IMG/VR virus record: IMGVR_UViG_3300037882_000813
Location: 1 to 27,327 of that record
From: a virus
Strand: one strand, 5' to 3'
Length of the DNA: 27,327 nt
Made by a program: the position numbers and the translations under genes. Below the pieces are notes generated by a model that saw nothing but the letters and a program-made list of their open reading frames with translations, did not search any database and had not been told where the DNA came from. This document shows, piece by piece, positions 1 to 21,934 of this stretch (positions are counted from its first letter, which is position 1; the number at the start of each line of letters is the position of its first letter).

Positions 1-3000
1 CAGCGCCGTCAGTTCCTCGCTCAAGCCCCAAGAAGCTGAGCAACCCCGTTGCCTCGATCTCGGCTTGCTTCACGCCCGCCGCTTTCAACTGCGCCAACAT
101 CTGCTCCGGCGTGCCCTTGGCTTGCTTCAAGCCTTTCGCTGCTTCTAGTGCTTTGGAATAGTAGCCAAGCGCGTCAAGATCAGCACGCATGGAACGGCCT
201 GTGTCACGGTCGGCAATGGCGAACAGGGCTTCACTGTCGTTTGCACGAACAGGCTTGCCGTCCTTCGCTACGATCTCAATCAGTCTGTCGTCGAACACGA
301 CGTAGTTATGAGTGCCTTGACCAGTCGCGCGAGAGCCTTGGTCTAGGTAACGGATGCCGGGGATGCCTGCTTCGAGAAGCTGTTGCCTTGACTTTTGGAG
401 ATGCAGTTGCTGCAACAGATCGGCTGTCGGGCGGTTTTCAAGTGGAGCGCCAAATTCATCAATGCGCTCAGGCGTTGGGCTGAAAATACTTCCACCAGAT
501 TTCAGCCGTTCAACTTGTTCAGACTGTTTTTTAAGTAGTTCCGGCCACGCGGAACTACTCATAAATTGTTGTCGCACCTTCTCACTCTGCTGGCTCAGTG
601 GTTTGTCCCAATCCAGGAAGTCGTTTGGGTCTGCCTTGATGTTGACTTCGTACATGCGGCCGGGCGATTGCCAACCGCGGCGCTCCAGCATTGATTTCCA
701 TGCCGCCTGCACGGCAACTGGAAGTTCACCAGCCTGCATCAGGTCTCTGATCCGCATATCGATGCCAGCCAGAGATTCAGAGTCGTTCTGTAAAAAGTCT
801 CTAACATCGGACAACACTCGGCGCTCAAGCGCAGATTGCGGGTTGAAACCGCTGACATCGCCTTCTGTCAATCGCTTCGGCACATCAGGTGAATTTGGTC
901 CAACAAGGCTATCCCGATAGCTTCGCGCGACCCCTTCTTTTTCGGCGAAGTACAACCCATGCCCATACGCCTGCGCACCTTCTCCCGTCCCGATCTTGTC
1001 CAGTGAGAACCTATCGAAGTCATGGGGTGAGCCGTGATAGGCGCGAATCGCGAAGAGATGAACGCCGCTTAGCTCTGACCCGTCAGGCAGAATGACGCGC
1101 GACTTAGCCGCATCGTGGATCATGACCCGAACGTCGTCTATCGATCGCGCGCCCATCGCCCCGCTCTCGATGCTCTCAAACACGTCATAGACGTTGCGGA
1201 AGTTCATTCCGCCGAGCTTCTCGCGAAGCGTCGCCATGAAGGACACGATGGAATCGATCATGCGATCCACCACACCGCCATCAGCAACATCACCGAACCG
1301 GCGACCGTTGAGGCTGTAGTCAGCGAACATATGCGCAATGGTCTCTTCGCGAAGCAGCTGCTCGACGTAGTCATTGCCGCGGTCGCCGTAAGCCGTTTGG
1401 TATTCCGCCCTATAGCGGTTGTCGATATCGTAGGCTTGGCGCAGCTTCATGCGCTCAGCAAAGCGATACATCGTGGCAAACTCGTCATCCGTCATCAGGC
1501 CGGATCGGCGCAGGGCATGCACAACTTCGTGCCTCATGGCGCGCACCGGATCGCCGGACTCCATGGCCAGATAGATCATGCGGTCATAGCCGCTATAGAG
1601 GCCGTCAAGACGACGGTCGCCGTTGCCGAAATCAAACACTAAAGCGTCTTCGACGCGCACGCGCACGTCACGAGGCAACATCGCAATCGATCGGTCTATC
1701 TCCATACGGATTTCGGTCATGCGTGCGTTGGCTTCTGGCGTGAGCAGGACCGGCTTCGACGCGTCGAGAATGCGTGGCGATTGGAACTGCGGCACGGCTT
1801 TGGCCAGCATGGATGCCGCTTCGGCTTGTCTGCCTTGCCCACTCAACGCTTCTGAGATGCGGGCGGCAATGGTTGGATCGACATCAAGTGCGGCGGCGAT
1901 GGCTCGGCTGATGCCGGGCATGACGTCGTCGGCTGCTTCCATGCCTTGGTCGAGATACCGGCGATAGATGGCGACTGGATCGACCGGCGGCCTTGCGGGC
2001 TTGGCAGTGGCCGGGGCCGCGATGGCTTTGAGGTCGTCTGCCAGGATTTCGCGGAGACGCTCCATGTGCACAATGCCGTCCTTGCCGGTGCGCTGATCAA
2101 CGTACTCGATCAACTTGGGCATGGGCTGGTCCAGCGCGGCGTTCACGCGCGAACGGAAGTCAGCGATAGACTGTCCTGATACGCGATCAGACAACGCCGC
2201 CATGAGCAGAGGTGAGGAAGACTTAGCAGGGTCAAAGTCTGCGTTTACAGAGCGGATGTTGAAGGGATCGAAGACGACGACCTGCTTTTGAAGGACTAAA
2301 GCGCCACCGTCGATGTTGCCCATGCGGACGATCTGCTGTGCTTCTGGCACGTCGTAGTCGAGCCAGGGGGGGCGGGCGCGACGTTGGTCGGCGGTAAGAC
2401 CGGCACGATTTTGCACAAGGCGGGCCTCGGCTTCACCAGCAAAGCGGCGATAGATCCCGTCTGCTATTGTTTCAGGCGTGTGCGGGTTGACTGATGTCCA
2501 ACCGTTGCCACCGTCGTTACTTTCAATTGACTTGAGAGCGTCTGCGTACTCTGGCGTTTCTCTGGCCGTGTTGTAATTTCCACCGGCTGCCGTCCCTTCG
2601 CGAGATTGAATGGCGTGTTGCATTTCATGGAGGGCGGTGCTCTTAAACTGGTTCGGTTTAAGAGCTTCGTTAAAGCCAAACTCGTTCCTGATCTCACCGT
2701 TTACCCTGCGCTGACCATACATGCCGTGTGAGGGCGAACCTTCTCGCAACAGCGATGTTGGCTCCGTCATGATGTCAGGGTATGCCGCGCCCAACTCATC
2801 ATGGTTTAGCAGTGACCGCAGTTTCAACGGGCCTAATGCGTTAGGAGCTAGCGCATTGGCGTATGCGGCTCCCAAGCTCGGAGCCATCATCGTGCCATTG
2901 CGTCGCTCTAGCCATTGCGGAACGGGGACGCTTGGTTTTGCCCCGCTATCATCGATCTCAAACCGCCACTTGCCATCCACACCCTTGAACCAGCCGTGAT

Positions 3001-5941
3001 CCTTCCAAATCTGGTCGCGTGACACACCATCCGCTTCGGCTTGCTTTGCCTTCGCCAACACTTCAAGATCAGCAGTCTTTGCGCGCTCACCAGCAAAGGC
3101 AAACATCTTGCCTTCAGGTGAGACCGCAACGGCTGTTAGGTCTTCGGAGCGCATTGCCGCCTGCGCACTCCGCATCCATTCCGCTCTCGCGTCGCGACGC
3201 GCGACCTCGCCAGAGAGAATCGCACGGGTCACGTCGTCAGCATTGCGAAATCCAAGACCACGCAGAGAGTTGCCGAGACGGTCGAAGAAGCGCTTGATGC
3301 GGTCCAGGATGGTGTTTGCGGCTCCGAAGTCCTCACCCTTGATCCGAGCTTCGACCGCATGCGCAGCGGCTTCCTCGATGATCAGATCGTCGATACCGTC
3401 GCGACCGGCATAGGCAGCACGATAGTCCGCCTCGCGCGTGAACAGCCCACGGTCTTTGGCGAGGTCTGCCAGGAGCTTCAACTCTTCGGGCGACAGAAGG
3501 CCCATAGTGCGGAGGGTGTGAACGGCTTCGTGGCCGAGCCTTGCCATCGGGTTTATGGCATAGGTTGCAAGCTTGATCTCACCCGTGGTCATATCGCTGG
3601 ATGCATCAAGCAGAGCGCCGGACTTCGGGTCGATTAAATCGCCCTGGACGACTTCGATCTTGGCCTTATCGGGAAGGACGCGGCTTGCAAACTGCATGGC
3701 GTCGTCGAGTGCACGCTTGATGCCGAGGGCTTGTTTCAACGCCGCCATCTGGTCGGACTTGGCCGACATCACGACGCGCCGTTCCGTCAGCCCGCGCACA
3801 CCAGCCTTCTCAATCGCCTGCTCGAACCGTCGCAAGGTGGCATCGACCACACGGTCAACCGGCTGGCCTTCGGCAACGGCGCGCGCCGACGTGTTGAGCA
3901 CGTCGCTGACCATGCCGGGCTTCTGCGCCAGACGCTTGACCACAGAGGCGACCGCCGCCGTCTCAATGTCTCCGATGAATCCAGGCCCACCACGAAGCGT
4001 GGTTAGCACGTTGGCCAGAACCTCTTCGCGCGCTTCGAGCACATGAGGTTCCGCCAACGTTGCGCCCATGGTGCGGGCCAGGTCATCGGCGGTTGCCGTG
4101 GTCTGGATGGCATCACCGATCGCGCGGCGCGCGGCGTCGTCCGTCTTTGCACCTGATGCAATCACGGCATCGACCGCGGCCTGATGCCGAACGGGTTCGG
4201 CCACCAGTTCGGATACGAGCGCCGCATGACGTGGCTCTATGCTGCCGTCTGCCACGCGCTGCAACGCGTCGTCGGACAGCTTGGACAGCGCCATGGCTTC
4301 CCGCATCCAAGGCGAGCTACCAGACATGCCGATATCGATCATTTCAGGGTGTTGGCGGATCGCGCGAACGGCATCCATCAGGTCGCCGCTACCTTCCATG
4401 AGGTTCTTCTTGGTGGCGACAGCGCGAACCTCTTCGACGGTCCAGCCGTCCTTTTCGCGGAAAACGAAACCGTCCATCTTCGGGTCATTAGCCCTCGACG
4501 CCAGCTTCAGCCGATCGTGGCCGTCCGCAATGACGAGCTTGCCGTCTGCTCGCTCATAAACCACGACACGATCAGCTAGCGCCGGATCGAACTCGACATT
4601 GTCGAGCATGCCGGATGCGCCAGAGGACGCATCGCGACCGCCTTTGAACTGGAACGATGCCTGGTCTGCCGTGATGGTCTTGGCGTCCAGGGACCGCAGC
4701 GCCACCGGCTTGCCGCCAAAATCGAACTCTCGATAGTGCTGATTGCCTTCGATGCCCTTCGGGGTCTCGGAGAGGTCCGGCACGCGCGATTGTCCCGGAG
4801 CCTCGACACGGGCGATAGGAGGCTCTGACGGATCGTCCATGGCGCGCAACATCTGCGCCATGATGCGGTCGGACGCGCCATTGTCGATGCCCTCGACTTC
4901 GATCCGGTCGTCTGCCGCCATGCGCAGCCGGTTTAGCGCGCCACGGACGGATGGGTCTTCCAGATCACCGGTCGCCGTCAGCACCTTCTCGATGGCATCG
5001 GGATCGCCAGCTTCGGCCTTGGCCTTCACGTCCTCGGGGATCGCATCGATTGCGGCTTGCTGCGCACGGATAGCCTCAAGCTCTGCTTGCGCCTTGGCTG
5101 TTGCGTCGGCCCTGAGCTTGGCGTCTGCGGCACTTTCGTAACCGACAACAGCGCCGTTGCTGTCAAGGATCGCCTTACGGCCGGCGAGGCGCTGTCCGCC
5201 ACGATAAAGGCTTCTGACACCGCCATCCGCAACGGCTCCAAATGCGCCGGCCATGGCCACGTTGGCAGCCGCGACGGACCAGCCGTACTCATCGCCCATG
5301 GTCTTGCGATAGCGCTGGATGATAGGTTCGACAGCGGCTTGCGTGCCGGCATTGGCAAGCCCCTGCTTGACCGCCATCTGCGTGATGGCGCGGGCGCCCT
5401 GGCGGGCTTGTCCAGGCGGGCCAATGAGCAGCGTTGCCACTTGTGCGGGGTCTAGAAGGAACGCCCCGAACCCGCCGGCAAAATCCGCAACCACTCCGGT
5501 GCCGGTCGCGCCGCCGTAGGACTTTTCAGCGCGGTCGTAACGGTCAACGGTTTCGCGGTACGTCTTGCGCACGTCCTGAGCGATCGGCCGGTCTGCGCCA
5601 ATCGCCTCCGCCTTATCCGGGTGCTTCTCGGCAAGCTTCTTCAGGCGCTCGTGGAAGTCGGCGTGGCGCTGCGGCGCCGTCATGCGCGCGGTCTGGGCGC
5701 CCGCGAGGCCCATGCCATAGCCGCCGTCCATCGGATTCGTCCAGGTCTCGCCGGTCGCCTCCTTGATCGCCTTTATCCGGGCGACATACGCGTCATAGAG
5801 GTTTGCATCGTCCGAGATCGAGCGATCCCGCACGAGCCCCGCCTCGTAAGCCGCCACGGTTCGGTCGACGAACGTGCTCGGCTCCTGGACGAGGTTGACA
5901 GTCGCCGGGCGAACGGACTTCTCTGGCTCTTCAAAGAACAT
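1..5941 (-). CDS. Giant phage polyvalent protein (ParB-like, metallopeptidase-like and ADP-ribosyltransferase-like domains), C-terminus off the window
   Basis: An open frame of 1980 codons starts at ATG 5941 (GGAG four bases upstream) and runs without a stop to the left edge, so the gene is partial. Residues about 125-230 are Gly/Ala-rich and hydrophobic, as in ejected phage proteins. A ParB-like domain lies at about 420-490 (ADGHDR at 472-477). Three HExxH modules follow: HEAVH 804-808, HEMQH 1105-1109 and HEVVH 1471-1475. An ADP-ribosyltransferase-like domain spans about 1630-1950 (YHGS 1635-1638, LYFAE 1663-1667, then a conserved GIPGIRYLD segment). The last visible residues (ATGLLSFL) match a segment commonly seen in such proteins. 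Known polyvalent proteins are packaged or translocated with DNA and act on the newly infected host. Its place as last gene of the ejection module fits that role. The domain calls rest on motifs; enzymatic activity is inferred. Confidence 0.85.
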   Translation of the reverse strand, partial: MFFEEPEKSVRPATVNLVQEPSTFVDRTVAAYEAGLVRDRSISDDANLYDAYVARIKAIKEATGETWTNPMDGGYGMGLAGAQTARMTAPQRHADFHERLKKLAEKHPDKAEAIGADRPIAQDVRKTYRETVDRYDRAEKSYGGATGTGVVADFAGGFGAFLLDPAQVATLLIGPPGQARQGARAITQMAVKQGLANAGTQAAVEPIIQRYRKTMGDEYGWSVAAANVAMAGAFGAVADGGVRSLYRGGQRLAGRKAILDSNGAVVGYESAADAKLRADATAKAQAELEAIRAQQAAIDAIPEDVKAKAEAGDPDAIEKVLTATGDLEDPSVRGALNRLRMAADDRIEVEGIDNGASDRIMAQMLRAMDDPSEPPIARVEAPGQSRVPDLSETPKGIEGNQHYREFDFGGKPVALRSLDAKTITADQASFQFKGGRDASSGASGMLDNVEFDPALADRVVVYERADGKLVIADGHDRLKLASRANDPKMDGFVFREKDGWTVEEVRAVATKKNLMEGSGDLMDAVRAIRQHPEMIDIGMSGSSPWMREAMALSKLSDDALQRVADGSIEPRHAALVSELVAEPVRHQAAVDAVIASGAKTDDAARRAIGDAIQTTATADDLARTMGATLAEPHVLEAREEVLANVLTTLRGGPGFIGDIETAAVASVVKRLAQKPGMVSDVLNTSARAVAEGQPVDRVVDATLRRFEQAIEKAGVRGLTERRVVMSAKSDQMAALKQALGIKRALDDAMQFASRVLPDKAKIEVVQGDLIDPKSGALLDASSDMTTGEIKLATYAINPMARLGHEAVHTLRTMGLLSPEELKLLADLAKDRGLFTREADYRAAYAGRDGIDDLIIEEAAAHAVEARIKGEDFGAANTILDRIKRFFDRLGNSLRGLGFRNADDVTRAILSGEVARRDARAEWMRSAQAAMRSEDLTAVAVSPEGKMFAFAGERAKTADLEVLAKAKQAEADGVSRDQIWKDHGWFKGVDGKWRFEIDDSGAKPSVPVPQWLERRNGTMMAPSLGAAYANALAPNALGPLKLRSLLNHDELGAAYPDIMTEPTSLLREGSPSHGMYGQRRVNGEIRNEFGFNEALKPNQFKSTALHEMQHAIQSREGTAAGGNYNTARETPEYADALKSIESNDGGNGWTSVNPHTPETIADGIYRRFAGEAEARLVQNRAGLTADQRRARPPWLDYDVPEAQQIVRMGNIDGGALVLQKQVVVFDPFNIRSVNADFDPAKSSSPLLMAALSDRVSGQSIADFRSRVNAALDQPMPKLIEYVDQRTGKDGIVHMERLREILADDLKAIAAPATAKPARPPVDPVAIYRRYLDQGMEAADDVMPGISRAIAAALDVDPTIAARISEALSGQGRQAEAASMLAKAVPQFQSPRILDASKPVLLTPEANARMTEIRMEIDRSIAMLPRDVRVRVEDALVFDFGNGDRRLDGLYSGYDRMIYLAMESGDPVRAMRHEVVHALRRSGLMTDDEFATMYRFAERMKLRQAYDIDNRYRAEYQTAYGDRGNDYVEQLLREETIAHMFADYSLNGRRFGDVADGGVVDRMIDSIVSFMATLREKLGGMNFRNVYDVFESIESGAMGARSIDDVRVMIHDAAKSRVILPDGSELSGVHLFAIRAYHGSPHDFDRFSLDKIGTGEGAQAYGHGLYFAEKEGVARSYRDSLVGPNSPDVPKRLTEGDVSGFNPQSALERRVLSDVRDFLQNDSESLAGIDMRIRDLMQAGELPVAVQAAWKSMLERRGWQSPGRMYEVNIKADPNDFLDWDKPLSQQSEKVRQQFMSSSAWPELLKKQSEQVERLKSGGSIFSPTPERIDEFGAPLENRPTADLLQQLHLQKSRQQLLEAGIPGIRYLDQGSRATGQGTHNYVVFDDRLIEIVAKDGKPVRANDSEALFAIADRDTGRSMRADLDALGYYSKALEAAKGLKQAKGTPEQMLAQLKAAGVKQAEIEATGLLSFLGLERGTDGA

Positions 5942-5952
5942 GGGGCTCCGCG

Positions 5953-6264
5953 ATGATTGGCATTCTAGTATGCGCTTATGCTGGCTACGCGGGGTGGAAG
6001 CGCATCACGATCCTTGAATGGACCGTGCTCTCGATCGTCGTAAGCTTGCTGCTCATGGCGCTAAGGGGAGAACTTGATTACGCCGGGCATCTAGATTTCT
6101 GGGTCAGTATTCCGCTCGTAACGCTGGCTCACGCTGCGGCGTATGTTGCCGGCCGCGGCGCCCGTCGCCTCACCTCGGCAATTCGGAGCCGCCAAACCCG
6201 AACACACCGCCCGCCCGCAGAGGTTCCTCATAACCCCGATAAAGATCAGGCCGCCGCGCCTTGA
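5953..6264 (+). CDS. Small hydrophobic plus-strand protein, probable membrane protein
   Basis: This 103-residue frame lies in the 228-base gap between two large minus-strand genes and overlaps the 3' end of the ejection-protein gene by 95 bases. The product has about three hydrophobic stretches: residues 2-14, about 21-39 (TVLSIVVSLLLMAL) and about 50-67 (FWVSIPLVTLAHAAAYVAG). A basic, Pro-rich tail follows. A GGGG sits nine bases upstream of the ATG, a mediocre ribosome site. No family is recognised. A gene facing against the whole module in an otherwise unexplained gap resembles an autonomous moron-type insertion, but a chance hydrophobic ORF in GC-rich DNA cannot be excluded. Confidence 0.45.
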   Translation: MIGILVCAYAGYAGWKRITILEWTVLSIVVSLLLMALRGELDYAGHLDFWVSIPLVTLAHAAAYVAGRGARRLTSAIRSRQTRTHRPPAEVPHNPDKDQAAAP

Positions 6265-9200
6265 GCTTCTTCTCCAGCGCGAGCAAGTCGAGCACGAACG
6301 GCTTGCCCGTGCCATCGCGAAGCAGTGCATTATCGTCGCTCACATCCCCCTGAGCCAGCATGTACCGGCCATAACCAACAGAGATCGGCGTGGCGCGCCG
6401 CACCGCACCAATGCTGAGGGGCGTGTTGCTCGCCGTCGCAGGGCCAGAACCCATCGCGTCGATAAGATCCTCTTGGCGTAGCGCCCCGAGCAGTTGCGAG
6501 AACGTGCCGGCACTCAGCCATGGATCATCGTTCTTCACGTTCACCGGCAGCACGACCCGGTTGCCGTTGACCTTCTGCACCCCGCCATACGTGCCCTTGT
6601 TGTCCGCGTTCTCGCCGACAACCTCCTTGGCGATCTTGGCCCACTCTTCCGGCTTGGGCTTGTCCCAGCCGTGCCGCTGCGCCCTGACTTCGTAGATGGC
6701 ATTGACCGTTTCGGTCACGGCTGCCTCGCTCATGGGTGTTCGCGCGAACGTCGTGCCGAACGCCTTCACGAACTCGACCCGCGTGTCCGCCACCTTGGGC
6801 GGCACCACCATCTTCTCGCCAAGTGCGCGCTTCTGCTGTCGCTCGATGCCCTTGGCCGCGTCATCGATCAGCTTGGACGAGTGGCCAGCCGTCATCATCC
6901 AGCCAACCGTCGCCGCCTCCGGCGCCTGCTTGCTTATCTCTGCAACCGCCTGCAACGCCTCAGGTCCGAAGTTGCGATGCAGGGTGCCGAGCAGCCCGAG
7001 CATCTTGTCGCCTCCGACCTTCAGCTGATCGGAAAACTGATCCCGCTCCGCCTTGGTGAAGAACTTCACCGGCATCGCATGCCCGGTCTGCGCGAAATAC
7101 GCCGCGACCGTCTTGGCGTTGGCAACGCGCTCGGCCATCGACTCCGTCAGCTTTTCATCGCTGGAAAAGTCCAACTGACGCAACGGCATGATGCCGACCT
7201 TATCGGCCCATGTGTTCGGATCTTCGTTCAGCTCGGTCTGCATGGTGCGCAAGAGCGTCGTCATCCGATCTTTGCGCTTCAGGGCACTGGCGACCGTCTC
7301 CGGCGAGACCGGCGCCGACTTGATCGCCTGATCGACGCCTTGGATGGCCGCCTGCAACTGCGTCGGAGACATCAAACGCATCTCGCGCATATCGTCGGTG
7401 TAGGCTTTGACCGCAACCGGCGCCTGATCCACACCCATGCGCTTCGCCACGTCGGGCTTGCTCGCCACCAGAGCCTCAAGCTCACTCACATCCTGATCCC
7501 GGATGACGCCTTTCTCGGCGTTGTCCATGATGGTCTTGACGCGACCCTCGATGCCCTTCGCCCATCGGGCTTGAGCGGCCTCATGCTCCTTGGCGTACTG
7601 CGGCAGATGCCGGATCGCACTTTCGAGGAACTGCCGTTCGGCATGCCCGCCGCCGATGTTGGACGGCAAGCGGAACGGGCCGGCATCTGCGACACGGATC
7701 GGACGACCCGCGTCCGCAGTCGGGACCTGACCCTCAGCCCGAAACACCTTGCCGCCAGCCGCCTCACGCCCGTTATAGGCGTCTTGCGTCTTCATGTGAG
7801 TGACTTGCGCCCACGGGTTCGCCTTGACGAATGCGTCGGCTTCCTCGTGCGTCGAGGTCGGATCCTTGCGCTTCTGTCTGGTTGACTTGTCGGTGCCGGG
7901 ATCACCGAACTCGATGAAGTGAACCGGGACACCCATGTCAGCAAGCTGCTTGGCTGCTGCGACTTGCGCCTTATCCTTCATGCCGTGTTCGATCACGGCA
8001 TAGGGCGGCTTGAGATCCGGGTTCTTCTTGACGATCTCAACCCATGCGGCTGGGTTGTTCTTGGCGATCATCGTTGGGCCGGACTCCTTCACCGCCTTGG
8101 CGACGGCGGCAAGCTGATCCGGCTTCAGGTCATGCAGGTTGTCGACGTGGAGATAGTCCGCGCCTTGAGCCGCAAGCTTCTTTGCGTCGGCGGCAAGCTT
8201 TTTCAGTTCTGCCGGCTTGGTCAGATCGCGGTTGGCTTCGCCCCATGAAGCACCTCCACCAGCACCCTCGTGATAGGCGGAGACCTTGGCGCCAGCTTTC
8301 TTCGCCGCCGCAACGGCCTCCTTGGCACCCGGCACGGACAAGTCGAAATCCACGATGCCGGCACCGGACTTGGCGATCTCATCGGGGGTCGGGGCATCGT
8401 CGAGAGACGTGATCAGACCAGAGCGGTTAGCGGCCTTGGCGTCTTTGACACCGCTCCCGCCAAGCATGAACTTGACTCCGCCGCGCAAGAACGGCTGCGC
8501 GTTCATCTGCGCGTTGGTCAGGTCGCGAGCTACGGGGATGTCGAACTTGCCATCGCCGGCGCCCTTGAAAGCCGATCCGGTGTCATGCACCACGGCGCGC
8601 ACATTCTTGGACGTGTGCTGCTGACCCTTGCTGTCGATCCACGTAATCTCGGGAATGGTATAGGACTTGCCATACTGGCTCGGATCGCCGGCAATGGTGA
8701 TGTAGTCGGACTTGCCTTGCTGCATGTCTTCGAGCGTGCGGACGATGGCCTTGCCGTCAGGTCCGGGCCGCGACGACGCATAACCGCCTTCCATCTTGGC
8801 CAGAGCCCCGCCGGCCTGCGGCGCGTAGGCTGTCAGCTTTGGTGCGATGCCATCGTCACCGCGCGGCGCAAGCCCGGCAAACGCTGTGATCCCGCGCTGC
8901 GCGACAGGTGGCGCCCTGTAGTTGACGGATCGATCGACCTCGAAATGCATGTCGTCCGGGTTCCGCCAGTCGCCGCCCCACTTCAGCCCGTGCTTGGCAG
9001 CGATTTCCCGGATCTTCTCGGCCGGCATGACATCCCGGATCTTGCCTTCCTTGCCGCGCGCATTCTCATTCCAGTTGAGGTCAATGGCTTCGCCGAAGGC
9101 GTGGCGGCTCTTGGTGTTCGTGCCAGCGATGTTGCGATCGGCAAAGCCACCGGACTGGCTTGCGTCAATCTTGACGCCTGCGGCCTCAAGATCGCTGATC

Positions 9201-10051
9201 AGGCCAGCAAACCGCTGCGCATAGTCCGTCGAAACACGGAACTTGGCACCACTCTGAGACTGCACAACCGAGTGCCCGCCAGACGCTGGCGCGATCGATG
9301 CGCCCGCACCAAGCGTAGTAGGCGCCTCTCGTGGCGGATTGGCCGGATCGATCCCGCGCGAGCGGATTATGCGCTCCATCGCCGGATAGAACTCGTCGAT
9401 CTTGCCGGCCTTCTCGTAGGTCTCGCGCATCTTTGTGATGGCGAAGTCCGAGGCATCCTTGGCAAGCTGTTGGCGACGACCTTCGGGCAATGGCGTCCTG
9501 GCGATGATGGCGTCGATGCCGGCGAGCGTACCAGCGACCTGCTGTTCGAGGTTGGCCGGATCGGCAAGGTCGATACCGCGGAACGTGTTGAGAATCGTGC
9601 CGTGCGTATCGTTGAAGAGCTTGTCGCCGCGTTTGCCGTACTCCCAGTTCAGATCACTCTCGTAGAAGTTATGGCCCGTCGAGGCGAAACGTAGCTGTGC
9701 TCGCTTGCGACCTTCGTCGGTGCGCATCTTCGGCATCAGGTCGTTGTTGAAGCTCTCCGTGCGCTTGCCGTGCCAAGACAGTGCCGTGCCATCCGGGTTG
9801 TCGCCAGACCATTCGTTGCGCTGCTTGATCGACTGCTCTGTCTGCTGGTTGAGCCAGTTGAGTTCGGCCAGCTTGTCTTGGAAGTCGTCCTCTTCCTTGG
9901 TCTTGGCATCGAACGCAGAGGCAACGTTGCCGAGCGCATTGCCAAGACCTTTGACGGCATCTCCGACAGCCGAATAGCCGCCGCCCGATGAGGTCGGCTG
10001 CATCGCGCCACGGAAGTCGACGACGTTATCAGTTACGGGGATCTTGGGCAT
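6170..10051 (-). CDS. Internal virion (ejection) protein with M15 peptidase, 3D and GH114-like domains
   Basis: This 1293-residue protein probably forms part of the ejection apparatus and cuts the cell wall during DNA entry. The start at ATG 10051 (MPKIPVTD) overlaps the TGA of the upstream gene by one base; in-frame sequence further upstream is an antisense-like shadow of that gene. Residues 1-250 are helical and polar. At about 270-375 lies a VanY/M15-type zinc peptidase: SRHAFGEAID gives H317 and D324, and DMHFEV gives H369. At about 405-512 is a 3D-type double-psi barrel (VVHDTGSAFKG, then FDIPV), as in MltA-like lytic transglycosylases. At about 545-720 is a TIM-barrel-like segment (GIVDFDLS, KVSAYHEG, YLHVDN, HFIEFGDP) resembling GH114/polygalactosaminidase proteins; this is the least certain call. 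The rest to 1293 is long helical sequence typical of T7 gp15/gp16-type proteins. Confidence 0.85.
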   Translation of the reverse strand: MPKIPVTDNVVDFRGAMQPTSSGGGYSAVGDAVKGLGNALGNVASAFDAKTKEEDDFQDKLAELNWLNQQTEQSIKQRNEWSGDNPDGTALSWHGKRTESFNNDLMPKMRTDEGRKRAQLRFASTGHNFYESDLNWEYGKRGDKLFNDTHGTILNTFRGIDLADPANLEQQVAGTLAGIDAIIARTPLPEGRRQQLAKDASDFAITKMRETYEKAGKIDEFYPAMERIIRSRGIDPANPPREAPTTLGAGASIAPASGGHSVVQSQSGAKFRVSTDYAQRFAGLISDLEAAGVKIDASQSGGFADRNIAGTNTKSRHAFGEAIDLNWNENARGKEGKIRDVMPAEKIREIAAKHGLKWGGDWRNPDDMHFEVDRSVNYRAPPVAQRGITAFAGLAPRGDDGIAPKLTAYAPQAGGALAKMEGGYASSRPGPDGKAIVRTLEDMQQGKSDYITIAGDPSQYGKSYTIPEITWIDSKGQQHTSKNVRAVVHDTGSAFKGAGDGKFDIPVARDLTNAQMNAQPFLRGGVKFMLGGSGVKDAKAANRSGLITSLDDAPTPDEIAKSGAGIVDFDLSVPGAKEAVAAAKKAGAKVSAYHEGAGGGASWGEANRDLTKPAELKKLAADAKKLAAQGADYLHVDNLHDLKPDQLAAVAKAVKESGPTMIAKNNPAAWVEIVKKNPDLKPPYAVIEHGMKDKAQVAAAKQLADMGVPVHFIEFGDPGTDKSTRQKRKDPTSTHEEADAFVKANPWAQVTHMKTQDAYNGREAAGGKVFRAEGQVPTADAGRPIRVADAGPFRLPSNIGGGHAERQFLESAIRHLPQYAKEHEAAQARWAKGIEGRVKTIMDNAEKGVIRDQDVSELEALVASKPDVAKRMGVDQAPVAVKAYTDDMREMRLMSPTQLQAAIQGVDQAIKSAPVSPETVASALKRKDRMTTLLRTMQTELNEDPNTWADKVGIMPLRQLDFSSDEKLTESMAERVANAKTVAAYFAQTGHAMPVKFFTKAERDQFSDQLKVGGDKMLGLLGTLHRNFGPEALQAVAEISKQAPEAATVGWMMTAGHSSKLIDDAAKGIERQQKRALGEKMVVPPKVADTRVEFVKAFGTTFARTPMSEAAVTETVNAIYEVRAQRHGWDKPKPEEWAKIAKEVVGENADNKGTYGGVQKVNGNRVVLPVNVKNDDPWLSAGTFSQLLGALRQEDLIDAMGSGPATASNTPLSIGAVRRATPISVGYGRYMLAQGDVSDDNALLRDGTGKPFVLDLLALEKKLKARRPDLYRGYEEPLRAGGVFGFGGSELPR

Positions 10052-10515
10052 CAGCCTATCGCAAACATGTTGCCGGACTTGGCAACGTTGCCGAGCCCGC
10101 CGAGGAACGATGACGCAGCACCGATCATGCCGGCCGAGCGCTGATTTGCTGCCTGGGCTTCGTAGTCGCGCGCCTTGTTCTCGTGCGCGATGGCCTGGCC
10201 TTCGGCGTTGACGTAGCTCGTGGACTTGTCTTGCGAGCGGTTGGCTTCGTTTTCGCCGAAGATGATCAGCGCCGCTGATCCATAACCCGCATCGACGCCA
10301 CCCTTGGATGCCGCCGTGATCGCTTGACCTTGAACCTTGTCGTACTTGGCGCCGAGTTTTTCCTGTTCGGTGTAGCCTTCCCACCGCTTGGAGCGCGCAT
10401 TGATGCGCTCGACTTGGGCGTTGTACTCCGCTTGAGCGGCCTGACCGTTTGCCGCCATCATCGAGCCCATGGCGGAGACGCCAGCACTGAGCAGCCCGAT
10501 TGCTGGTCCGCACAT
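10051..10515 (-). CDS. T7 gp14-like internal virion core protein
   Basis: This 154-residue protein has a hydrophobic Gly/Ala/Met-rich N-terminus (AIGLLSAGVSAMGSMMAA), a charged helical middle (QAEYNAQVERINARSKRWE) and a Gly-rich hydrophobic C-terminus (GMIGAASSFLGGLG). This is the usual layout of the T7 gp14 family, whose members are ejected and form the outer-membrane part of the DNA-entry channel. It lies six bases downstream of the tail protein gene, and its TGA overlaps the ATG of the large ejection protein, the canonical gene order. It begins MCG, like the two small proteins ahead of the portal. Confidence 0.8.
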   Translation of the reverse strand: MCGPAIGLLSAGVSAMGSMMAANGQAAQAEYNAQVERINARSKRWEGYTEQEKLGAKYDKVQGQAITAASKGGVDAGYGSAALIIFGENEANRSQDKSTSYVNAEGQAIAHENKARDYEAQAANQRSAGMIGAASSFLGGLGNVAKSGNMFAIG

Positions 10516-10521
10516 CGCTTA

Positions 10522-12393
10522 TCAGCCTGTCGTGTTGACTTCGGCAACGAGGCCCGCGACGAAAAACGGAAACGGATCGTTGTGTTCTATACGCACGATG
10601 CCCTCGTGCTGCCACCCGCTCTGCATCTCAAGACGCACAAGCCCCGTGTAGAGTGGCGGGCTCGCATCCATCGCCATCGACGGCTTGCGATAGAGGATCG
10701 GGCGTTGATCCGACGCCGTGGATCCAAACGTGCCGCCGAGGCTGTTCGATAGCCGAACGAACACCTCGCTCACGTTCTTCTGGCGGCTCTGTGCTGCGCC
10801 TGCTCGCGCGCCCGCCTCGATGTCCATGGGCTCGATCACCGTCGCGACCGGGAAACCAATCACCGCTTTGGTGCAGGCGATCGGCAACGTCACCTTACCT
10901 GCAGACGACACCACGGCTGTTCCAAGCTTTGCGCCATTGCCAAGGATCGTAACGGTCTCGCCGATCAGATGGTTGAGACCTGACACGGTCGTCGTCTCCG
11001 CGCCGCTGTAGACCACAGCACTGTCGAGATAGACGGCATCCGCCTTGGCGGTATCGTCAGCCAAGCCATCCACGATGACCTCGATATAGCGCACCGTTGA
11101 ACCGTTGACGGCGCGCTCGACGCTGAGCCACAGCTCATCGCTGTCCGCACCGGGCTGCACCGCCATGGACTTGATCAAAGCCCCCGTGCCGCCGATGACG
11201 TGGCGATGCCATGCCAACACCTCCTGCGTTTTTTCGAACGTGCACCCCGCCGCAACGCCGTCCGTGCGCCTGATCCAGATGACGTTGTCCGGCTCGGCCG
11301 CGAACGCGATCTGGTCGAAGCCCGGGCCGGTGATGTGCTCTGAAAACACCGTCAGATTGTTGCTGTCGTAGGCGTCGTTCGCGAGCGAGTACGTGAACTC
11401 GCGCAGCTTCTTGGCGGCATTGGTCGCCACGCCACGCCGTTGCGGATACATGACGGACTGGTTGACCCGGATCGGCCGCGCATCCGACGTACCGTAGGTC
11501 GCCTGGATGACCGCGCGCACGTTGCTCGGGGTCAACGCTTCCTGTTGGCTCGATGCTGCGATGGCGTACTCGCCTTGCGATGTCCCGGCCGTCAGAACGC
11601 GCCCGCCCATGAGCCACCGGATGCGATCTCCCGACCCTTCGGCCAGCCGGTAGATGATCGCGTCGCTGTCCCCTACGCCATCCTCGAAGTTCTCGAACGC
11701 GCCGCCAGATTTTGACGACCAGATCACGATGGGATCACTATCGGTGCCACCGAACCATAGCCGTTGCTCGAACATCGCCATTGCTGTCGGATAGCCGCGA
11801 TAGTCGGACCATGCGCCTTCCTCCCAGAACACCGTGCCGTAGCGCATGATCGATGCTGGGATCTGATACCTGACCAGCTCACAACTGACCTGCGTTGATG
11901 ACGTGAACCCCGTGATTTTGACGATGCAATAGCCGGGGTGCAGAAAGTCCGAATCGAAAAATGTCGTCTGCGATGCGCGCGCAAAGACCCGAACCGTCCC
12001 GCTTTTGTGCGCTGGCACGCGGGTGACGCTATCCCACGTCGTCAAGCCGGTGACGTTCCACACGCCGTAGACGTTGCCTTCGTTGGTGTAGGTCTGCCCA
12101 TTGGCCAGCGCCGCCGTGTTGTCGCCAACAGGCGCGTTCTGGATGCCGACAGCACTGCCGTCCTCGCTGAGCCGAAACAGTGCACCGACCATGCCAGCGT
12201 CGAACGTGGCGGATGTCGACACAAGCATGAGGTCCGTTCCGACCAAATGCGTTCCATAGGCCGTCGTGCCCCAATCGAGATACCCGCCGCTGGTGTAGGT
12301 CCATCCGGTCGTATTCGCGGTCGCAGCCAGCGTAACCGTGTTCGTGGTGACGGCGACGACCTCATAGGTGTTGCCGTTGAGGGGGTACGTCAT
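10522..12393 (-). CDS. Tail tubular protein B / stabilisation protein, C-terminal part
   Basis: This 623-residue protein carries the bulk of a T7 gp12-like nozzle or stabilisation protein. Family signatures include AMFEQRLWFGGTDSDP, IVIWSSKSGGAFENF, a RWLMGGRVLTAGTSQGEYA segment, and VLAWHRHVIGG. It starts at ATG 12393, which overlaps the TGA of the upstream N-terminal part as ATGA; in-frame sequence further upstream does not look like tail protein. The first ~35 residues (MTYPLNGNTYEVVAV... TYTSGG) are the second half of an E1-FCCH-like insertion domain. The first half of that domain ends the preceding ORF, so one structural domain is divided between two frames. The product ends six bases before the core protein gene. 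Confidence 0.85.
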   Translation of the reverse strand: MTYPLNGNTYEVVAVTTNTVTLAATANTTGWTYTSGGYLDWGTTAYGTHLVGTDLMLVSTSATFDAGMVGALFRLSEDGSAVGIQNAPVGDNTAALANGQTYTNEGNVYGVWNVTGLTTWDSVTRVPAHKSGTVRVFARASQTTFFDSDFLHPGYCIVKITGFTSSTQVSCELVRYQIPASIMRYGTVFWEEGAWSDYRGYPTAMAMFEQRLWFGGTDSDPIVIWSSKSGGAFENFEDGVGDSDAIIYRLAEGSGDRIRWLMGGRVLTAGTSQGEYAIAASSQQEALTPSNVRAVIQATYGTSDARPIRVNQSVMYPQRRGVATNAAKKLREFTYSLANDAYDSNNLTVFSEHITGPGFDQIAFAAEPDNVIWIRRTDGVAAGCTFEKTQEVLAWHRHVIGGTGALIKSMAVQPGADSDELWLSVERAVNGSTVRYIEVIVDGLADDTAKADAVYLDSAVVYSGAETTTVSGLNHLIGETVTILGNGAKLGTAVVSSAGKVTLPIACTKAVIGFPVATVIEPMDIEAGARAGAAQSRQKNVSEVFVRLSNSLGGTFGSTASDQRPILYRKPSMAMDASPPLYTGLVRLEMQSGWQHEGIVRIEHNDPFPFFVAGLVAEVNTTG

Positions 12394-13307
12394 GGCGCGC
12401 CGCCCTCGCCATAGTTGTTGCCGCCAGGATTTCCAGTATCGAGGACTCCAGAGTTTTCCGCTGTGACGCCCGTCACAAGGACGTAAGTACCAACGGTAAA
12501 GTCGTGCCCCGGCGCCGTGATCGTTACGGTCATTCCGGTGTTGATGCCGGTGATCGCCACGCGGTGAGTCGTATAGGCGCGAATGCGGTTGGTGCTGTCG
12601 CCGTTGATTGTGCGGAATGGACCCGTCGTGATGTCGGGCGTCGAAAGCACCCACGACGTGTTGGAAAACCGGCTGATCTTGCGCAGCGGATGATCCTTGT
12701 GCGTGATGTAGATCACGTCCCGGATCGAGACCAATTGCAGGGCATCCAACTGGTCAGCCGTGTAAGTCGTCGTCAGCTCGACGATCTTGGATGCCGTGCC
12801 GCCCGACGCATAAGCGGTGAAGGCCGATGAGTTCAATCCGGGTAGCTGAAAGGTGTTGGTCGCGGCGCCAGCCACCACGAAATGGCAATTGTTGACCTCA
12901 GCCATACCGCTGACGGACGCGATCAGAACGCGGTCGCCGTTGGAAAACCCATGCGCCGCCGACGTGACGACGGCCGGGTTTGCCGCCGTGATGCCGGTGA
13001 TGTTCTTGGCCGTGTTCGTGACCACGCCTCGGTTGCGGAAGAACCAGATGTAGCCTGGTCCGAACATCAGGATGTAACTGTCTTCGGTCGAGTAGATGTA
13101 CTCGACGAGGCGAACGTGATCCGTTGCGTTCTTCTGCGCCAGCACGAAGCGCGAGCCCGGCCGTTTGCGGGCGCCGCCGTGAGGCGTGACGATGGCGTTT
13201 TGCAGCACACGGCACCCCGCCGCATACTTGCGCACGTCGGTGCGCCCGGCGAGACGCGGGGAGAGCTCGCCGCCCGTGAAGTTGGAAACGAGATGCTGGA
13301 CCTTCAC
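12390..13307 (-). CDS. Tail tubular protein B / stabilisation protein, N-terminal part
   Basis: This 305-residue ORF begins with the classic N-terminus of phage stabilisation proteins (NFTGGELSPRLAGRTDVRKY, then QNAIVTPHGGARKRPG). Residues 101-172 form a complete E1-FCCH-like insertion domain (NPAVVTSAAHGFSNGDRV, then NTFQLPG). A second copy starts at about 251 (ITGINTGMTVTITAPGHDF) but is cut off by a TGA after residue 305 (GEGGAP). The sequence continues in the -1 frame from the overlapping ATG 12393. Together the parts total about 928 residues, longer than T7 gp12 (about 794) because of the insertion domains. The start is three bases after the tail tubular A stop. It could be two coupled genes, a frameshifted product, or one gene broken by mutation or sequencing error. 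Confidence 0.85.
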   Translation of the reverse strand: MKVQHLVSNFTGGELSPRLAGRTDVRKYAAGCRVLQNAIVTPHGGARKRPGSRFVLAQKNATDHVRLVEYIYSTEDSYILMFGPGYIWFFRNRGVVTNTAKNITGITAANPAVVTSAAHGFSNGDRVLIASVSGMAEVNNCHFVVAGAATNTFQLPGLNSSAFTAYASGGTASKIVELTTTYTADQLDALQLVSIRDVIYITHKDHPLRKISRFSNTSWVLSTPDITTGPFRTINGDSTNRIRAYTTHRVAITGINTGMTVTITAPGHDFTVGTYVLVTGVTAENSGVLDTGNPGGNNYGEGGAP

Positions 13308-13310
13308 CGC

Positions 13311-13946
13311 TCAGAACCTCGCCATGATCCAGCCGGTTGCATCGACAATGTCGCGGGGCGTGCCTTCCTGAGCATCGATCTGTCGCGCTTCGCGGATCTT
13401 CGCCTCGTAGGACTGCATGGCATACTCCGACATCTTTGCGTTATCGGTCATGGCCATTGCGATCTCGGCCGTCAGGCGTGCCGACAAGGCGTCGACAAAC
13501 AACGCATCGAACTGCGCCACGTCGGTAATGCGAGCCACATACTCGATCTTGCAGGTCGTGCCGTTGGTCAGGATGTACTTGCCCTCGACGCGATAGGAGT
13601 AACCAGCGCCACCGCCGACAAGGCCGGGATAACCGTAGACAACGCCGGCCGGCATGCCGTCAGCGTCTTCCGACGTTCGAAGGATCTTCAAGCAGTCATC
13701 AGGCAGAGCAAACTTGGCAGTGTATTCGAACGCGATTCCAGGTGACGCCAGCGAGGCCAGTTCCGCCCGTTTGATCGCGAAATTCCAGGGATGCGCGCGC
13801 AATACGGCGTCGCGCAAGATCGGATAGTGGAGCTTGCACAGAGCCGCGCCCTTGGTGTCCTGATCCAACGACGTGATGGTTGGATGGCCAAGACGGGTCA
13901 GGCTCATGTTGCAGAGTTGGACTTCCGAGGTGACGGTTGCCGTCAT
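13311..13946 (-). CDS. Tail tubular protein A (T7 gp11-like adaptor)
   Basis: This 211-residue protein forms the adaptor ring between portal and nozzle in short-tailed phages. Family features are visible: VQLCNMSLTRLGHPTITSLDQDTKGAALC at the start of the fold, then HYPILRDAVLRAHPWNFAIKRAELA, and a LPDDCLKILR segment. The start chosen is ATG 13946 (MTATVTSEV), five bases after GGGGG; an in-frame TTG four codons upstream is possible. It is the first gene after the hairpin at 13965-13984 and sits three bases ahead of the tail tubular B N-terminal part. Confidence 0.88.
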   Translation of the reverse strand: MTATVTSEVQLCNMSLTRLGHPTITSLDQDTKGAALCKLHYPILRDAVLRAHPWNFAIKRAELASLASPGIAFEYTAKFALPDDCLKILRTSEDADGMPAGVVYGYPGLVGGGAGYSYRVEGKYILTNGTTCKIEYVARITDVAQFDALFVDALSARLTAEIAMAMTDNAKMSEYAMQSYEAKIREARQIDAQEGTPRDIVDATGWIMARF

Positions 13947-14513: not shown

Positions 14514-15416
14514 TTACTGCGGGCCGTTCGTGGCATGGCATTCGATGTACCCAACGCGGACTTCTTCCATCCGCGTTGCACCGATATCCATGCAGCCGAA
14601 CACCTGCGTTGCGTAGTTCTTGTCGGCGCGCTCACCGATTTTGGTGGTGATGTCCTTGCCGACGCCGAGCAGGATGCCGCCCTTGGCCCAATACAGGCAC
14701 TTGTCGTAGGAGTTGCCGTCGACCCCGATGCGGTTGCACGGGATGATCGTGAACCCACCGAAGCGAGACACCTGACCCTCGACCAGAGGCTTGACCACGT
14801 TGTAGTCGTGCGAACTGATGCGCGTGTCGTTGAGCAGTGACTTGATTTGCCGCGCGTTGATGACGAGGAACTTTTCTTCGTCCGAGTCCACGTCGTTTGT
14901 GCCGAGTTTTTCGCCGGCCTCAAGGATCTTCGCGACGTTCAGGCCGAGGTTCGCCGACGCGACGCCAGGACCGCGTACCGTCACCGCGACCGTCATGGCC
15001 GCAGAGTACGCCGTCGATGTCGTGCCATCGACGCCAGTATAGGCGGTACCGTCAGCCGCGGCGACAATCTCGTCATCCATGGCGCGCCCCATCGCCATCG
15101 CAGCCGCCTCCGCATACTGCGAGGTCGGGTCGATGAGCATGCGGATCTGATCTTCGTTGTCGATCAGGTCGGCCCAATCGTAGGGATTGGTCGACACCTT
15201 GCGCCGGGAGTGCGGGGTATCCATGCGCGGCGTGTCGCTGTGCCGGCTGGTGCGCTTGCGAGCCGACGTGGCGCCGATCTGCTCGTAATAGCCCGACTTG
15301 CCGGTGACGGTTTCAACGCGGACGGCACGGCGGAGCTTCGAACCCTTCTGCTGGGTCAGGTGGTAGACGTTCGCCTTGTACTGTTCGACGAACGCCGTAG
15401 TGATCTGAATGGACAT
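14514..15416 (-). CDS. Major capsid protein
   Basis: This 300-residue protein, preceded by a very strong ribosome site (ATAGGAGGA, eight bases before ATG 15416), is the expected highly expressed capsid gene. The sequence resembles the capsid proteins of short-tailed phages: an N-terminal FVEQYKANVYHLTQQKGSKLR helix, then DTPRMDTPHSRRKVS and DWADLIDNEDQIRMLIDP (an E-loop/P-domain region), then AMGRAMDDEIVAA, and a C-terminal CLYWAKGGILLGVGKDI segment. It follows the scaffold and a 71-residue gene and is followed by a probable decoration gene. A 105-base leader precedes it. Confidence 0.85.
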   Translation of the reverse strand: MSIQITTAFVEQYKANVYHLTQQKGSKLRRAVRVETVTGKSGYYEQIGATSARKRTSRHSDTPRMDTPHSRRKVSTNPYDWADLIDNEDQIRMLIDPTSQYAEAAAMAMGRAMDDEIVAAADGTAYTGVDGTTSTAYSAAMTVAVTVRGPGVASANLGLNVAKILEAGEKLGTNDVDSDEEKFLVINARQIKSLLNDTRISSHDYNVVKPLVEGQVSRFGGFTIIPCNRIGVDGNSYDKCLYWAKGGILLGVGKDITTKIGERADKNYATQVFGCMDIGATRMEEVRVGYIECHATNGPQ

Positions 15417-16657: not shown

Positions 16658-16932
16658 GCAGTCCTCATGATGCGGTCCAGAATATCAGACGTATCCCGGT
16701 CGATCTCGGGGGCCTGCTCTGGCTTGAGGTTGATCAACTGGCTGATACGCACCAGCACATCGCGTTGGCCGATGGATCGCGCCATCGTGCCGTGATCTGT
16801 CGCCAATGGCGTGTCCATAAAACCGTAGTCGCGGAACAGGACGGCAATCGCCACCTTGCCCTCAGACGTGCTGTAGAAGTCTTTCCAGGCCGAAGCTGCG
16901 ATCTTGTCCGCCTTGGTTCGCCGCGTCGTCAT
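16654..16932 (-). CDS. Bbp19-like small phage protein
   Basis: This 92-residue protein lies between portal and scaffold, overlapping both by four bases (ATGA). The layout resembles the Bbp19-like family: a basic N-terminus, an AWKDFYSTSEGKVAIAVLFRDYGF helix region, then a polar linker and an IGQRDVLVRISQLINL helix. Members are found beside portal genes in short-tailed phages and their role is not established. The family call is from overall pattern, so it is moderate. Confidence 0.65.
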   Translation of the reverse strand: MTTRRTKADKIAASAWKDFYSTSEGKVAIAVLFRDYGFMDTPLATDHGTMARSIGQRDVLVRISQLINLKPEQAPEIDRDTSDILDRIMRTA

Positions 16933-20314: not shown

Positions 20315-21934
20315 TCAGAATGGCGTGTACTCGTTGCCAATGCCACGTGGCGGGCCGCGCCGATGGCGATCAGTGTTGTCAAATGGATCGTAAATTTGCT
20401 GCGCAACAGGCGCGTAACGGTCTTGATCTTCCTCGGCCGGAAACCGCAGCAGCATTTTGAAGTCTTCGTCTTCAAGGCGCGCTAGGCAATCCAGCATGTC
20501 ATCGTGCGACATGACCGGGAACGCCTTGTATTCCTCTTCAATGAACGTATCGATCAGGTTGCGTGTGACGCCTTCGTGGTCGGTGTAGTGCTTGGTGCGG
20601 CGCAGATAGATGCGACCATTCTCGAACAACGGGATGAGCCGGCGAATGCGGTCCAGCTTGGGCATCTGGCCGCCAAGCTCGGTGATGGCGAAGCGGTAGT
20701 TCTTGCGCTCCTGCTCAGTCTTGATGTGCTGGATATCGGCCTGCATGCCGTAGCGCTCGTAACCGACTGCCAGCGGCTTCCACTTCTTATGCAGGTCAAG
20801 CAATGTCGCCGCGCGTTCGGTCAAGTTCATGCGATCGCGGATAACGTCGAGGCCGATGTAGTTCTGATCTGGACCAAGGCCGATGACCCAAAACGTCGTG
20901 TAGTCGTTCGTCTTGCGCTTCTCGTTTGCCGGGTCGCAGATAATGTAGGTGTTGAGCCCGTCGCGAACCGGATCGTGTTGGACGAACTGCAACCATTCCT
21001 TCTTGAAGGTCTGGCTTCCATCCCCTTTGGGGTTCAAGAGCATCTGCGTTCCAAACGTGTAAGGCCCCTGTGTGCGGCGCTTGTCGCGTAGGGTTTCTGG
21101 CTTCATCAGAACGCAGTTTTCAGCGGCAAAGTTATCGGTGCCGTCCTTGGTGCAAGGGTGCTGGCGAACCTTGATGCTGCGCTTGATCAGATCCCCATAG
21201 GTGTCCGCGAAGTGGTACCGCGTGCCGGCCAAAGCGTAAGTTCCGCCTTCGGTGCCGAGGTTATCGCTCATCTCGAAGGCTGACGTTGTCTTCTGGATCA
21301 TCTCCGGCGTCGTCACGGATTCCAGCGTCACCACGTCGTCGTACATGCGATGCACGAAGTGTTTCGATGTGGGCTGGCCGTCAACCAAGCCGTGAGCCTC
21401 AACCGTCGCCTCCTTGGGATTGCCCTTGCGCTTTACCGTGATGCCTTCGTCTTCTGTCCACTTCGACGCTTCTTTGCGCGGGTTGGCGTAGAAGATGTCA
21501 TCGAAGACGGTCTGTAGATGATCATTGGTTTCGAGTTCGTACTTGATCTGGCGAAGGAAGCCCTTTGCGATCGGCTTCGTATGGCTGAAAATGCCGACTG
21601 TCACTTCGCGTTGAACCGGAGCATTATCACCGTGAGAACGAATGATGCGGAAGATTGTACCGGCGAACGTGATGATGGTCGATTTGTAATGCTCACGAGC
21701 CCAAAGGTCCAACACCCCGTCGATCTCGCGCTGCACCTCACGGCATCGTTCGAAGATCCACTGATTGTCCACGTCAGGCCGGCGCAAGCCGTAGCGCAAC
21801 AAGGCGTAGAGGTCAGTTCTGTAGAGGTCCCTCAGTCTCGCCTTCTGTTCGCTTGCCGATAGCGGCTGCAACGAAGTCAGCAAACGGCGATACTGGCTCC
21901 GCTGTGTGATGATGTCGATTGTCGCTGGTGACAA
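20315..21934 (-). CDS. terL: Terminase large subunit
   Basis: This 539-residue DNA-packaging motor and nuclease carries a Walker-A-type motif at about 79-87 (AREHYKSTI), a form typical of one podovirus TerL family. A Walker-B-like HRMYDDVVT follows. The C-terminal RNase H-like nuclease has an acidic ICDPAN, a VGYERYG strand and a terminal HDDMLDCLAR aspartate pair. The longest frame starts at TTG 21934 and overlaps the small terminase by 122 bases; in-frame TTG codons near 21883 and 21871 are alternatives. It ends before the HNH gene. Confidence 0.93.
   Translation of the reverse strand: MSPATIDIITQRSQYRRLLTSLQPLSASEQKARLRDLYRTDLYALLRYGLRRPDVDNQWIFERCREVQREIDGVLDLWAREHYKSTIITFAGTIFRIIRSHGDNAPVQREVTVGIFSHTKPIAKGFLRQIKYELETNDHLQTVFDDIFYANPRKEASKWTEDEGITVKRKGNPKEATVEAHGLVDGQPTSKHFVHRMYDDVVTLESVTTPEMIQKTTSAFEMSDNLGTEGGTYALAGTRYHFADTYGDLIKRSIKVRQHPCTKDGTDNFAAENCVLMKPETLRDKRRTQGPYTFGTQMLLNPKGDGSQTFKKEWLQFVQHDPVRDGLNTYIICDPANEKRKTNDYTTFWVIGLGPDQNYIGLDVIRDRMNLTERAATLLDLHKKWKPLAVGYERYGMQADIQHIKTEQERKNYRFAITELGGQMPKLDRIRRLIPLFENGRIYLRRTKHYTDHEGVTRNLIDTFIEEEYKAFPVMSHDDMLDCLARLEDEDFKMLLRFPAEEDQDRYAPVAQQIYDPFDNTDRHRRGPPRGIGNEYTPF

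What the first reader, a model, noticed from the sequence alone, without database searches (positions are those of the whole stretch)
1..5941. Giant polyvalent protein combining ParB-like, three HExxH modules and an ADP-ribosyltransferase-like domain
One continuous frame of at least 1980 residues unites domains known from polyvalent proteins delivered with phage DNA. It is the last gene of the ejection module, consistent with packaging in the head or injection. Such proteins may disarm host defence or modify host proteins at the start of infection. The exact domain order here may be new and should be catalogued.
Basis: partly seen in the sequence, partly recalled or inferred. Interest (0 to 1): 0.7.

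Follow-up and report, generated by a model that had tools for sequence, protein, structure and literature searches.

The report
Giant injected protein of short-tailed phage
A short-tailed bacterial virus encodes a protein of at least 1,980 amino acids, in the gene position of the proteins such viruses fire into the cell ahead of their DNA, that joins a conserved delivery part with a DNA-gripping ParB-like part to a variable set of enzyme-like parts (three possible metal proteases and an ADP-ribosyltransferase).

Summary
One ATG-started frame runs leftward from 5941 for 1,980 codons without a stop and leaves the window at its left edge. It has three HExxH motifs (0.03 expected), LPD23, a ParB-like module (structure matches Noc and ParB, Z 9.0 and 8.7) and an ART domain with an intact H-Y-D triad (structure matches cyanophage A4's pre-ejectosome protein, then tankyrases and diphtheria toxin). 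Residues ~24-718 (helical N-domain, ParB N-domain, HTH-like region, helical region) are a conserved core in more than 70 phage and prophage proteins, many only 780-1,200 aa. In 65 of 72 testable loci it follows capsid, tail tube A/B, gp14-like and gp15-like genes in order: the T7 gp16 position. What follows (zincin-type, LPD23 with HExxH, zincin-type, ART, a truncated module) is a variable cassette. Best reading: a gp16-position ejection protein whose ParB-like part grips entering DNA while the cassette is carried into the cytoplasm. Virion presence is supported by relatives only. Zincin fold, CTPase activity, ADP-ribosylation and any anti-defence role are untested. Polyvalent proteins are known; this architecture and the ParB-bearing core are the new part.

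The parts
2..5941 (-). giant polyvalent protein, >=1980 aa, C-terminus beyond the left edge
   Evidence: open frame
4907..5872 (-). residues 24-345: helical N-terminal domain with conserved GG..G...DP motif; part of the conserved core
   Evidence: A3 profile; hits PDB 9vvp_L Gp29 E 7e-4; model pLDDT mostly 70-98
4391..4732 (-). residues 404-517: ParB/Srx-like N-domain, motif DGHDR (H475, R477) and KNLME (N513, E516)
   Evidence: Foldseek/VIA to Noc, ParB, PadC, sulfiredoxin; invariant columns
4091..4390 (-). residues 518-617: HTH-like helical region of the ParB-like module
   Evidence: VIA to ParB/Noc DNA-binding domains 6s6h, 4umk, 6y93
3788..4048 (-). residues 632-718: conserved helical region closing the core
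   Evidence: 75 ORFs carry it
3167..3745 (-). residues 733-925: HExxH module 1 (HEAVH 804-808, downstream EEAAAH at 856)
   Evidence: H, E, H and downstream E invariant in six aligned modules; paralogue of module 3
2936..3100 (-). residues 948-1002: LPD23
   Evidence: PF18838 E 1e-21
2324..2935 (-). residues 1003-1206: HExxH module 2 (HEMQH 1105-1109, Y..GEAEAR at 1164-1174)
   Evidence: 30-member alignment: both His in 29 of 30, Glu in 30; Y/G/R invariant
1142..1735 (-). residues 1403-1600: HExxH module 3 (HEVVH 1471-1475, EETIAH at 1532)
218..1051 (-). residues 1631-1908: ADP-ribosyltransferase domain, H1636, Y1664, D1884/D1885
   Evidence: PF18760, VIA, conservation
41..166 (-). residues 1926-1967: YYS..LKQAKGTPEQML..GVK..EIEATGL module, cut by the window edge
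   Evidence: interior in relatives
6170..10048 (-). gp15-like gene with M15 peptidase domain (structural lysin)
   Evidence: PF13539 E 4e-14; synteny
10051..10515 (-). gp14/internal virion protein B-like gene
   Evidence: synteny
10522..13307 (-). tail tubular B-like gene, split over two frames
   Evidence: phrog_376 in both pieces
13311..13946 (-). tail tubular A-like gene
   Evidence: phrog_394
14514..15416 (-). major capsid protein
   Evidence: PF19821 E 4e-84
16929..18737 (-). portal / head-tail connector
   Evidence: PF12236 E 3e-130
20315..21934 (-). terminase large subunit
   Evidence: phrog_38

Best explanation
It is the gp16-position ejection protein of a T7-like podovirus that has grown into a polyvalent protein. 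It is packaged in the head, leaves before or with the DNA, and its N-terminal core helps build the channel across the envelope. The core's ParB-like module, on the cytoplasmic side, binds and holds the entering genome, the job ascribed to T7 gp16-C. The C-terminal cassette rides into the cytoplasm: HExxH modules act as zincin proteases that most likely cut the polypeptide into parts (or cut host proteins), and the ART domain ADP-ribosylates a host target. Shown: frame, domains, folds of the ParB-like and ART parts (predicted models), conserved core and gene order. Inferred from relatives: virion location. Inferred by analogy: channel role, DNA gripping, self-cleavage, ADP-ribosylation in the cell.
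For: Gene order MCP-TTA-TTB-gp14-like-gp15-like-core is collinear in 65 of 72 loci, with the gp15-like gene directly adjacent in 41 of 42. In Pseudomonas phage AF the same slot holds a 2,213-aa LPD22/LPD23 protein after 'internal virion protein A, B' and 'structural lysozyme'. The H66 protein sharing LPD23 plus HExxH, and part of the N-domain, is noted in GenBank as verified in the virion by mass spectrometry. The ART model's best match is PDB 9k3a_B of cyanophage A4's pre-ejectosome, identical to A4L_27, encoded next to the 'internal protein' gene. The core profile hits PDB Gp29, four chains. ParB fold. T7 gp16-C reaches the cytoplasm, binds DNA and is proposed to clamp the genome (PMC8954989). 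Zincin self-processing proposal: PMC5512222.
Against: No direct evidence that this protein is in virions or injected. No significant sequence match of the window protein itself to T7 gp16; only 3 of 42 aligned proteins hit the gp16-type PHROG 342. ParB catalytic signatures are altered: GHDR for GERR, KN for EN, so CTP use is doubtful. The zincin fold was not recovered: strands of module 3 were of low confidence and no zincin appeared among listed matches. The N-domain's hydropathy is only moderate.
Confidence: 0.65

Rival explanations
1. The whole protein, ParB-like part included, is an injected counter-defence/effector protein, in the manner of phage P1 DdrB/DarB, and has no role in building the DNA channel or holding DNA during entry.
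For: ParB, zincin and ART domains recur in P1-type and other polyvalent proteins (PMC5512222); BFVD matches include proteins named 'DdrB-like' and 'large polyvalent protein associated'.
Against: The ~700-residue core is held in fixed order and fixed slot directly behind the gp15-like gene in dozens of phages, many with nothing else attached, which fits an essential ejection part better than a dispensable effector.
Confidence: 0.2
2. It is a virion protein whose cassette is degenerate or structural: HExxH and ART modules are relics or act only in packaging (as the MPTase region of N4 vRNAP is needed for encapsidation), with no enzyme activity in the host.
For: Architectures vary widely among relatives; ART scores below the Pfam cut-off.
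Against: All catalytic motifs are intact and conserved: H-Y-D in ART, HExxH plus downstream glutamate in all three modules.
Confidence: 0.1

Closest known systems
Phage polyvalent proteins (Iyer et al. 2017, PMC5512222)
   Same: One giant polypeptide beside virion genes combining ParB-like, zincin-type HExxH, LPD and ART (HYD clade) domains.
   Different: This domain order was not seen in any other protein sampled; the ParB-like part has both the N-domain and an HTH-like region, not only the ParB/Srx domain described for DdrB-like ParB.
T7 gp16 and podovirus gp16-position ejection proteins (PMC8954989)
   Same: Same slot after gp14- and gp15-like genes; largest protein of the ejection set; presumed DNA-binding part after an N-terminal helical domain.
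   Different: No transglycosylase found in this protein (the lysin, M15, is in the gp15-like protein, as lysozyme is in K1E gp35); ParB-like module instead of T7 gp16-C; long enzymatic C-terminal cassette.
Cyanophage A4 / Anabaena phage A-4L protein A4L_27 (PDB 9k3a_B)
   Same: Protein of the pre-ejectosome, encoded next to the 'internal protein' gene, with an ART-like region that is the best structural match of this ART domain (Z 9.3, rmsd 4.1, 145 residues).
   Different: No detectable sequence homology; no HExxH or LPD23 match; a ParB-like stretch before its ART is suggested by eye only.
Pseudomonas phage AF protein AF_016 and H66_0060
   Same: Same late-gene slot; LPD23-type module with HExxH; H66_0060 noted as found in virions by mass spectrometry.
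   Different: AF_016 carries LPD22; neither gave a match to the ParB-like module or to this ART in the comparison.
Noc / ParB / KorB
   Same: Fold of N-domain plus HTH region over ~165-185 residues.
   Different: Catalytic boxes changed (GHDR, KN..E); C-terminal dimer domain not identified; no PF02195 hit.

Membership tests
Phage polyvalent proteins | several unrelated activities in one polypeptide | tested here: met
   ParB-like fold, LPD23/HExxH, ART fold in one frame
Phage polyvalent proteins | encoded among late virion genes | tested here: met
Phage polyvalent proteins | delivered into the host with the DNA | not testable with these tools
   only relatives: H66_0060 in virion (GenBank note), 9k3a
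Zincin-like metallopeptidases | HExxH plus downstream Glu ligand | tested here: met
Zincin-like metallopeptidases | zincin fold | tested here: inconclusive
   module 3 modelled with low-confidence strands, no zincin among listed matches; modules 1 and 2 not modelled
ART, HYD2-type clade (PF18760) | ART fold | tested here: met
   VIA rows are ART proteins, Z 6.6-9.3; Foldseek alone weak
ART, HYD2-type clade (PF18760) | H, Y, D active-site residues | tested here: met
   H1636 45/46, Y1664 46/46, D1884 and D1885 40/46 each
ART, HYD2-type clade (PF18760) | score over the Pfam gathering cut-off | tested here: not met
   27.6 against 31.2 bits, 29.3 for the segment alone; so filed as ART by fold and residues, not as a Pfam-certified member
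ParB/Noc CTPase clamps | N-domain plus HTH fold | tested here: met
   7nfu Z 9.0 over 185 residues, 6t1f Z 8.7 over 164 residues
ParB/Noc CTPase clamps | GERR and ENxQR nucleotide motifs | tested here: not met
   GHDR and KNLME instead
ParB/Noc CTPase clamps | PF02195 match | tested here: not met
   no ParB Pfam hit for the module at E<=10
T7 gp16-type ejection proteins | slot directly after the gp15-like gene | tested here: met
T7 gp16-type ejection proteins | sequence homology to gp16 | tested here: inconclusive
   phrog_342 hit by 3 of 42 aligned proteins, not by the window protein; 9vvp Gp29 E 7e-4
T7 gp16-type ejection proteins | member of the internal core stack | not testable with these tools
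   needs virion cryo-EM or mass spectrometry

The most novel reading that the evidence does not exclude
A large group of short-tailed phages, many of them of Alphaproteobacteria, uses a ParB-like module as the DNA-gripping part of the gp16-position ejection protein, so that a partition-type DNA clamp works as part of the genome-entry machine, and effector cassettes are swapped on behind it.
Probability: 0.3. Interest if true: 0.72.

Novelty: new variant of a known kind. Interest (0 to 1): 0.48.

Why it matters
The protein ties two bodies of work together: polyvalent proteins (thought of as counter-defence weapons) and podovirus ejection proteins (thought of as channel builders). If the conserved ParB-like core is the genome grip of the ejection machine, the open question of how gp16-type proteins hold and ratchet entering DNA becomes testable with a module whose structural relatives (ParB, Noc) are well understood. 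It also gives a rule for finding injected effectors: read what is appended behind this core.

Tried and rejected
Single-module scans of the viral collection with the N-terminal, ParB, zincin-1 and zincin-3 regions found nothing by single sequence; only the ParB alignment opened the family. A joint alignment of LPD23 and ART relatives put LPD23 rows on the ART columns, so LPD23/HExxH-2 was not modelled. No meaningful PDB sequence match for ART or LPD23 profiles. Idea that the ParB part is a plain chromosome-type ParB: rejected, motifs differ. Idea that the protein ends at about 2,000 aa like its homologue P0002: not supported, since the last module is interior in relatives. No NCBIfam match. 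No paper found that links ParB with ejection proteins; the cyanophage A4 paper is not held. The VIA list shows no T7 gp16 for the N-domain; that is no evidence against.

Full report
OBSERVATION. The window is a 27,327-base virus record, apparently a fragment. The minus-strand frame from 5941 to the left edge gives 1,980 residues without a stop; the other five frames carry 34-94 stops. Three HExxH motifs stand at 804, 1105 and 1471 (0.03 expected). Pfam gives LPD23 (E 1e-21) and a sub-threshold ART-PolyVal.

GENOMIC SETTING. Upstream on the same strand lie terminase, portal, capsid, tail tubular A and B, a gp14-like gene and a gp15-like gene with an M15 peptidase: a T7-like late module. The giant gene follows the gp15-like gene with a 228-nt gap.

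A CONSERVED CORE. A ParB-module alignment opened 324 relatives in viral contigs, and a scan of prokaryote genomes gave 32 loci, mostly Alphaproteobacteria. Profile scans show that N-domain, ParB-like module and a helical region occur together, in that order, in more than 70 proteins, of which many are 780-1,200 aa and carry nothing else that these profiles recognise. In 65 of 72 loci with enough upstream DNA, the capsid, tail and gp14/gp15-like genes precede the core in the same order; where the gp15-like gene is detected it abuts the core frame in 41 of 42. No member of the aligned core set hits Pfam; 40 of 42 hit phrog_10691, of unknown function, and 3 hit the gp16-type phrog_342. The core profile hits PDB 9vvp_L 'Gp29', 1,295 aa, four chains, E 7e-4, over the N-domain.

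THE ParB-LIKE MODULE. The model of residues 1-745 (mean pLDDT 80) matches Noc (7nfu, Foldseek E 9e-4, VIA Z 9.0, rmsd 4.9, 185 residues), Caulobacter ParB (Z 8.7), KorB and the isolated ParB/Noc DNA-binding domains; the N-domain alone also matches PadC and sulfiredoxin. Sequence comparison with host ParB proteins is collinear but weak. The nucleotide boxes differ: GHDR where ParB has GERR, KN where ParB has EN. So it is ParB-like in fold, with CTP use in doubt.

THE CASSETTE. HExxH modules 1 and 3 are paralogues with an invariant downstream glutamate. Module 2 follows LPD23 and keeps HE..H and Y..GE.E.R across 30 aligned sequences. The ART domain keeps H1636, Y1664 and D1884/1885, the H-Y-D set described for polyvalent-protein ARTs (PMC5512222). 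Its model matches ART proteins only weakly by Foldseek, but VIA ranks the cyanophage A4 pre-ejectosome protein first (Z 9.3), then diphtheria toxin, tankyrases, PARP1, MbcT and ParT at about Z 7. That A4 protein is A4L_27, 1,717 aa, next to the 'internal protein' gene. The nearest full-length relative, P0002 (2,001 aa), shares the N-domain, one zincin-type module and the ART (50-56% identity in the last two) but lacks the ParB N-domain motif, LPD23 and the second zincin-type module, and has further ART-like stretches. The order core - HExxH - LPD23/HExxH - HExxH - ART was found in no other sampled protein; other mixtures of core, zincin-type and ART modules exist (L226, L234; ART in L208, L132 and L234 by Pfam).

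HOW IT PROBABLY WORKS. In T7, gp16-C enters the cytoplasm, binds DNA and is proposed to clamp the genome (PMC8954989). The same slot here carries a ParB-like DNA-binding fold. I infer that this module does the gripping, that the N-domain belongs to the trans-envelope assembly, and that the C-terminal cassette is thereby carried into the cytoplasm, where zincin-type modules cut the chain or host proteins (PMC5512222) and the ART modifies a host target. Virion presence is inferred from H66_0060 (GenBank note) and A4L_27.

LIMITS. No direct virion data; zincin fold not recovered; C-terminus missing; ParB chemistry uncertain; counts come from searched collections with capped returns and related sequences among them, so they are not independent events.

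Noticed in passing
10522-13307 (-): The tail tubular B-like gene is split over two overlapping frames (12390-13307 and 10522-12654), both matching phrog_376; a frameshift or sequence error near 12390-12420.
   Followed up: partly
5953-6264 (+): A 103-aa frame with a hydrophobic helix lies antisense in the gap between the gp15-like gene and the giant gene; no match in phage records. In L002 the two genes abut and the gap is absent.
   Followed up: partly
6170-10048 (-): The gp15-like protein has an M15 peptidase; by eye also a 3D/RlpA-like and a GH114-like stretch, not confirmed by searches.
   Followed up: partly
window residues ~1226-1250 of the giant protein; L002 P0002 around 1000 and 1950: The motif FDPxxIRSVNAxFDPA(K)SSS recurs at the end of ART-like and LPD23 modules in both proteins, perhaps a shared module-end strand or recombination seam.
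   Followed up: no
19652-20281 (-): An HNH endonuclease gene sits between the terminase and portal genes.
   Followed up: no
L122:8939-11314: 'Dunaliella viridis virus SI2', deposited with an algal host, carries the bacterial-podovirus ejection module with this core; it looks like a phage of an associated bacterium.
   Followed up: no
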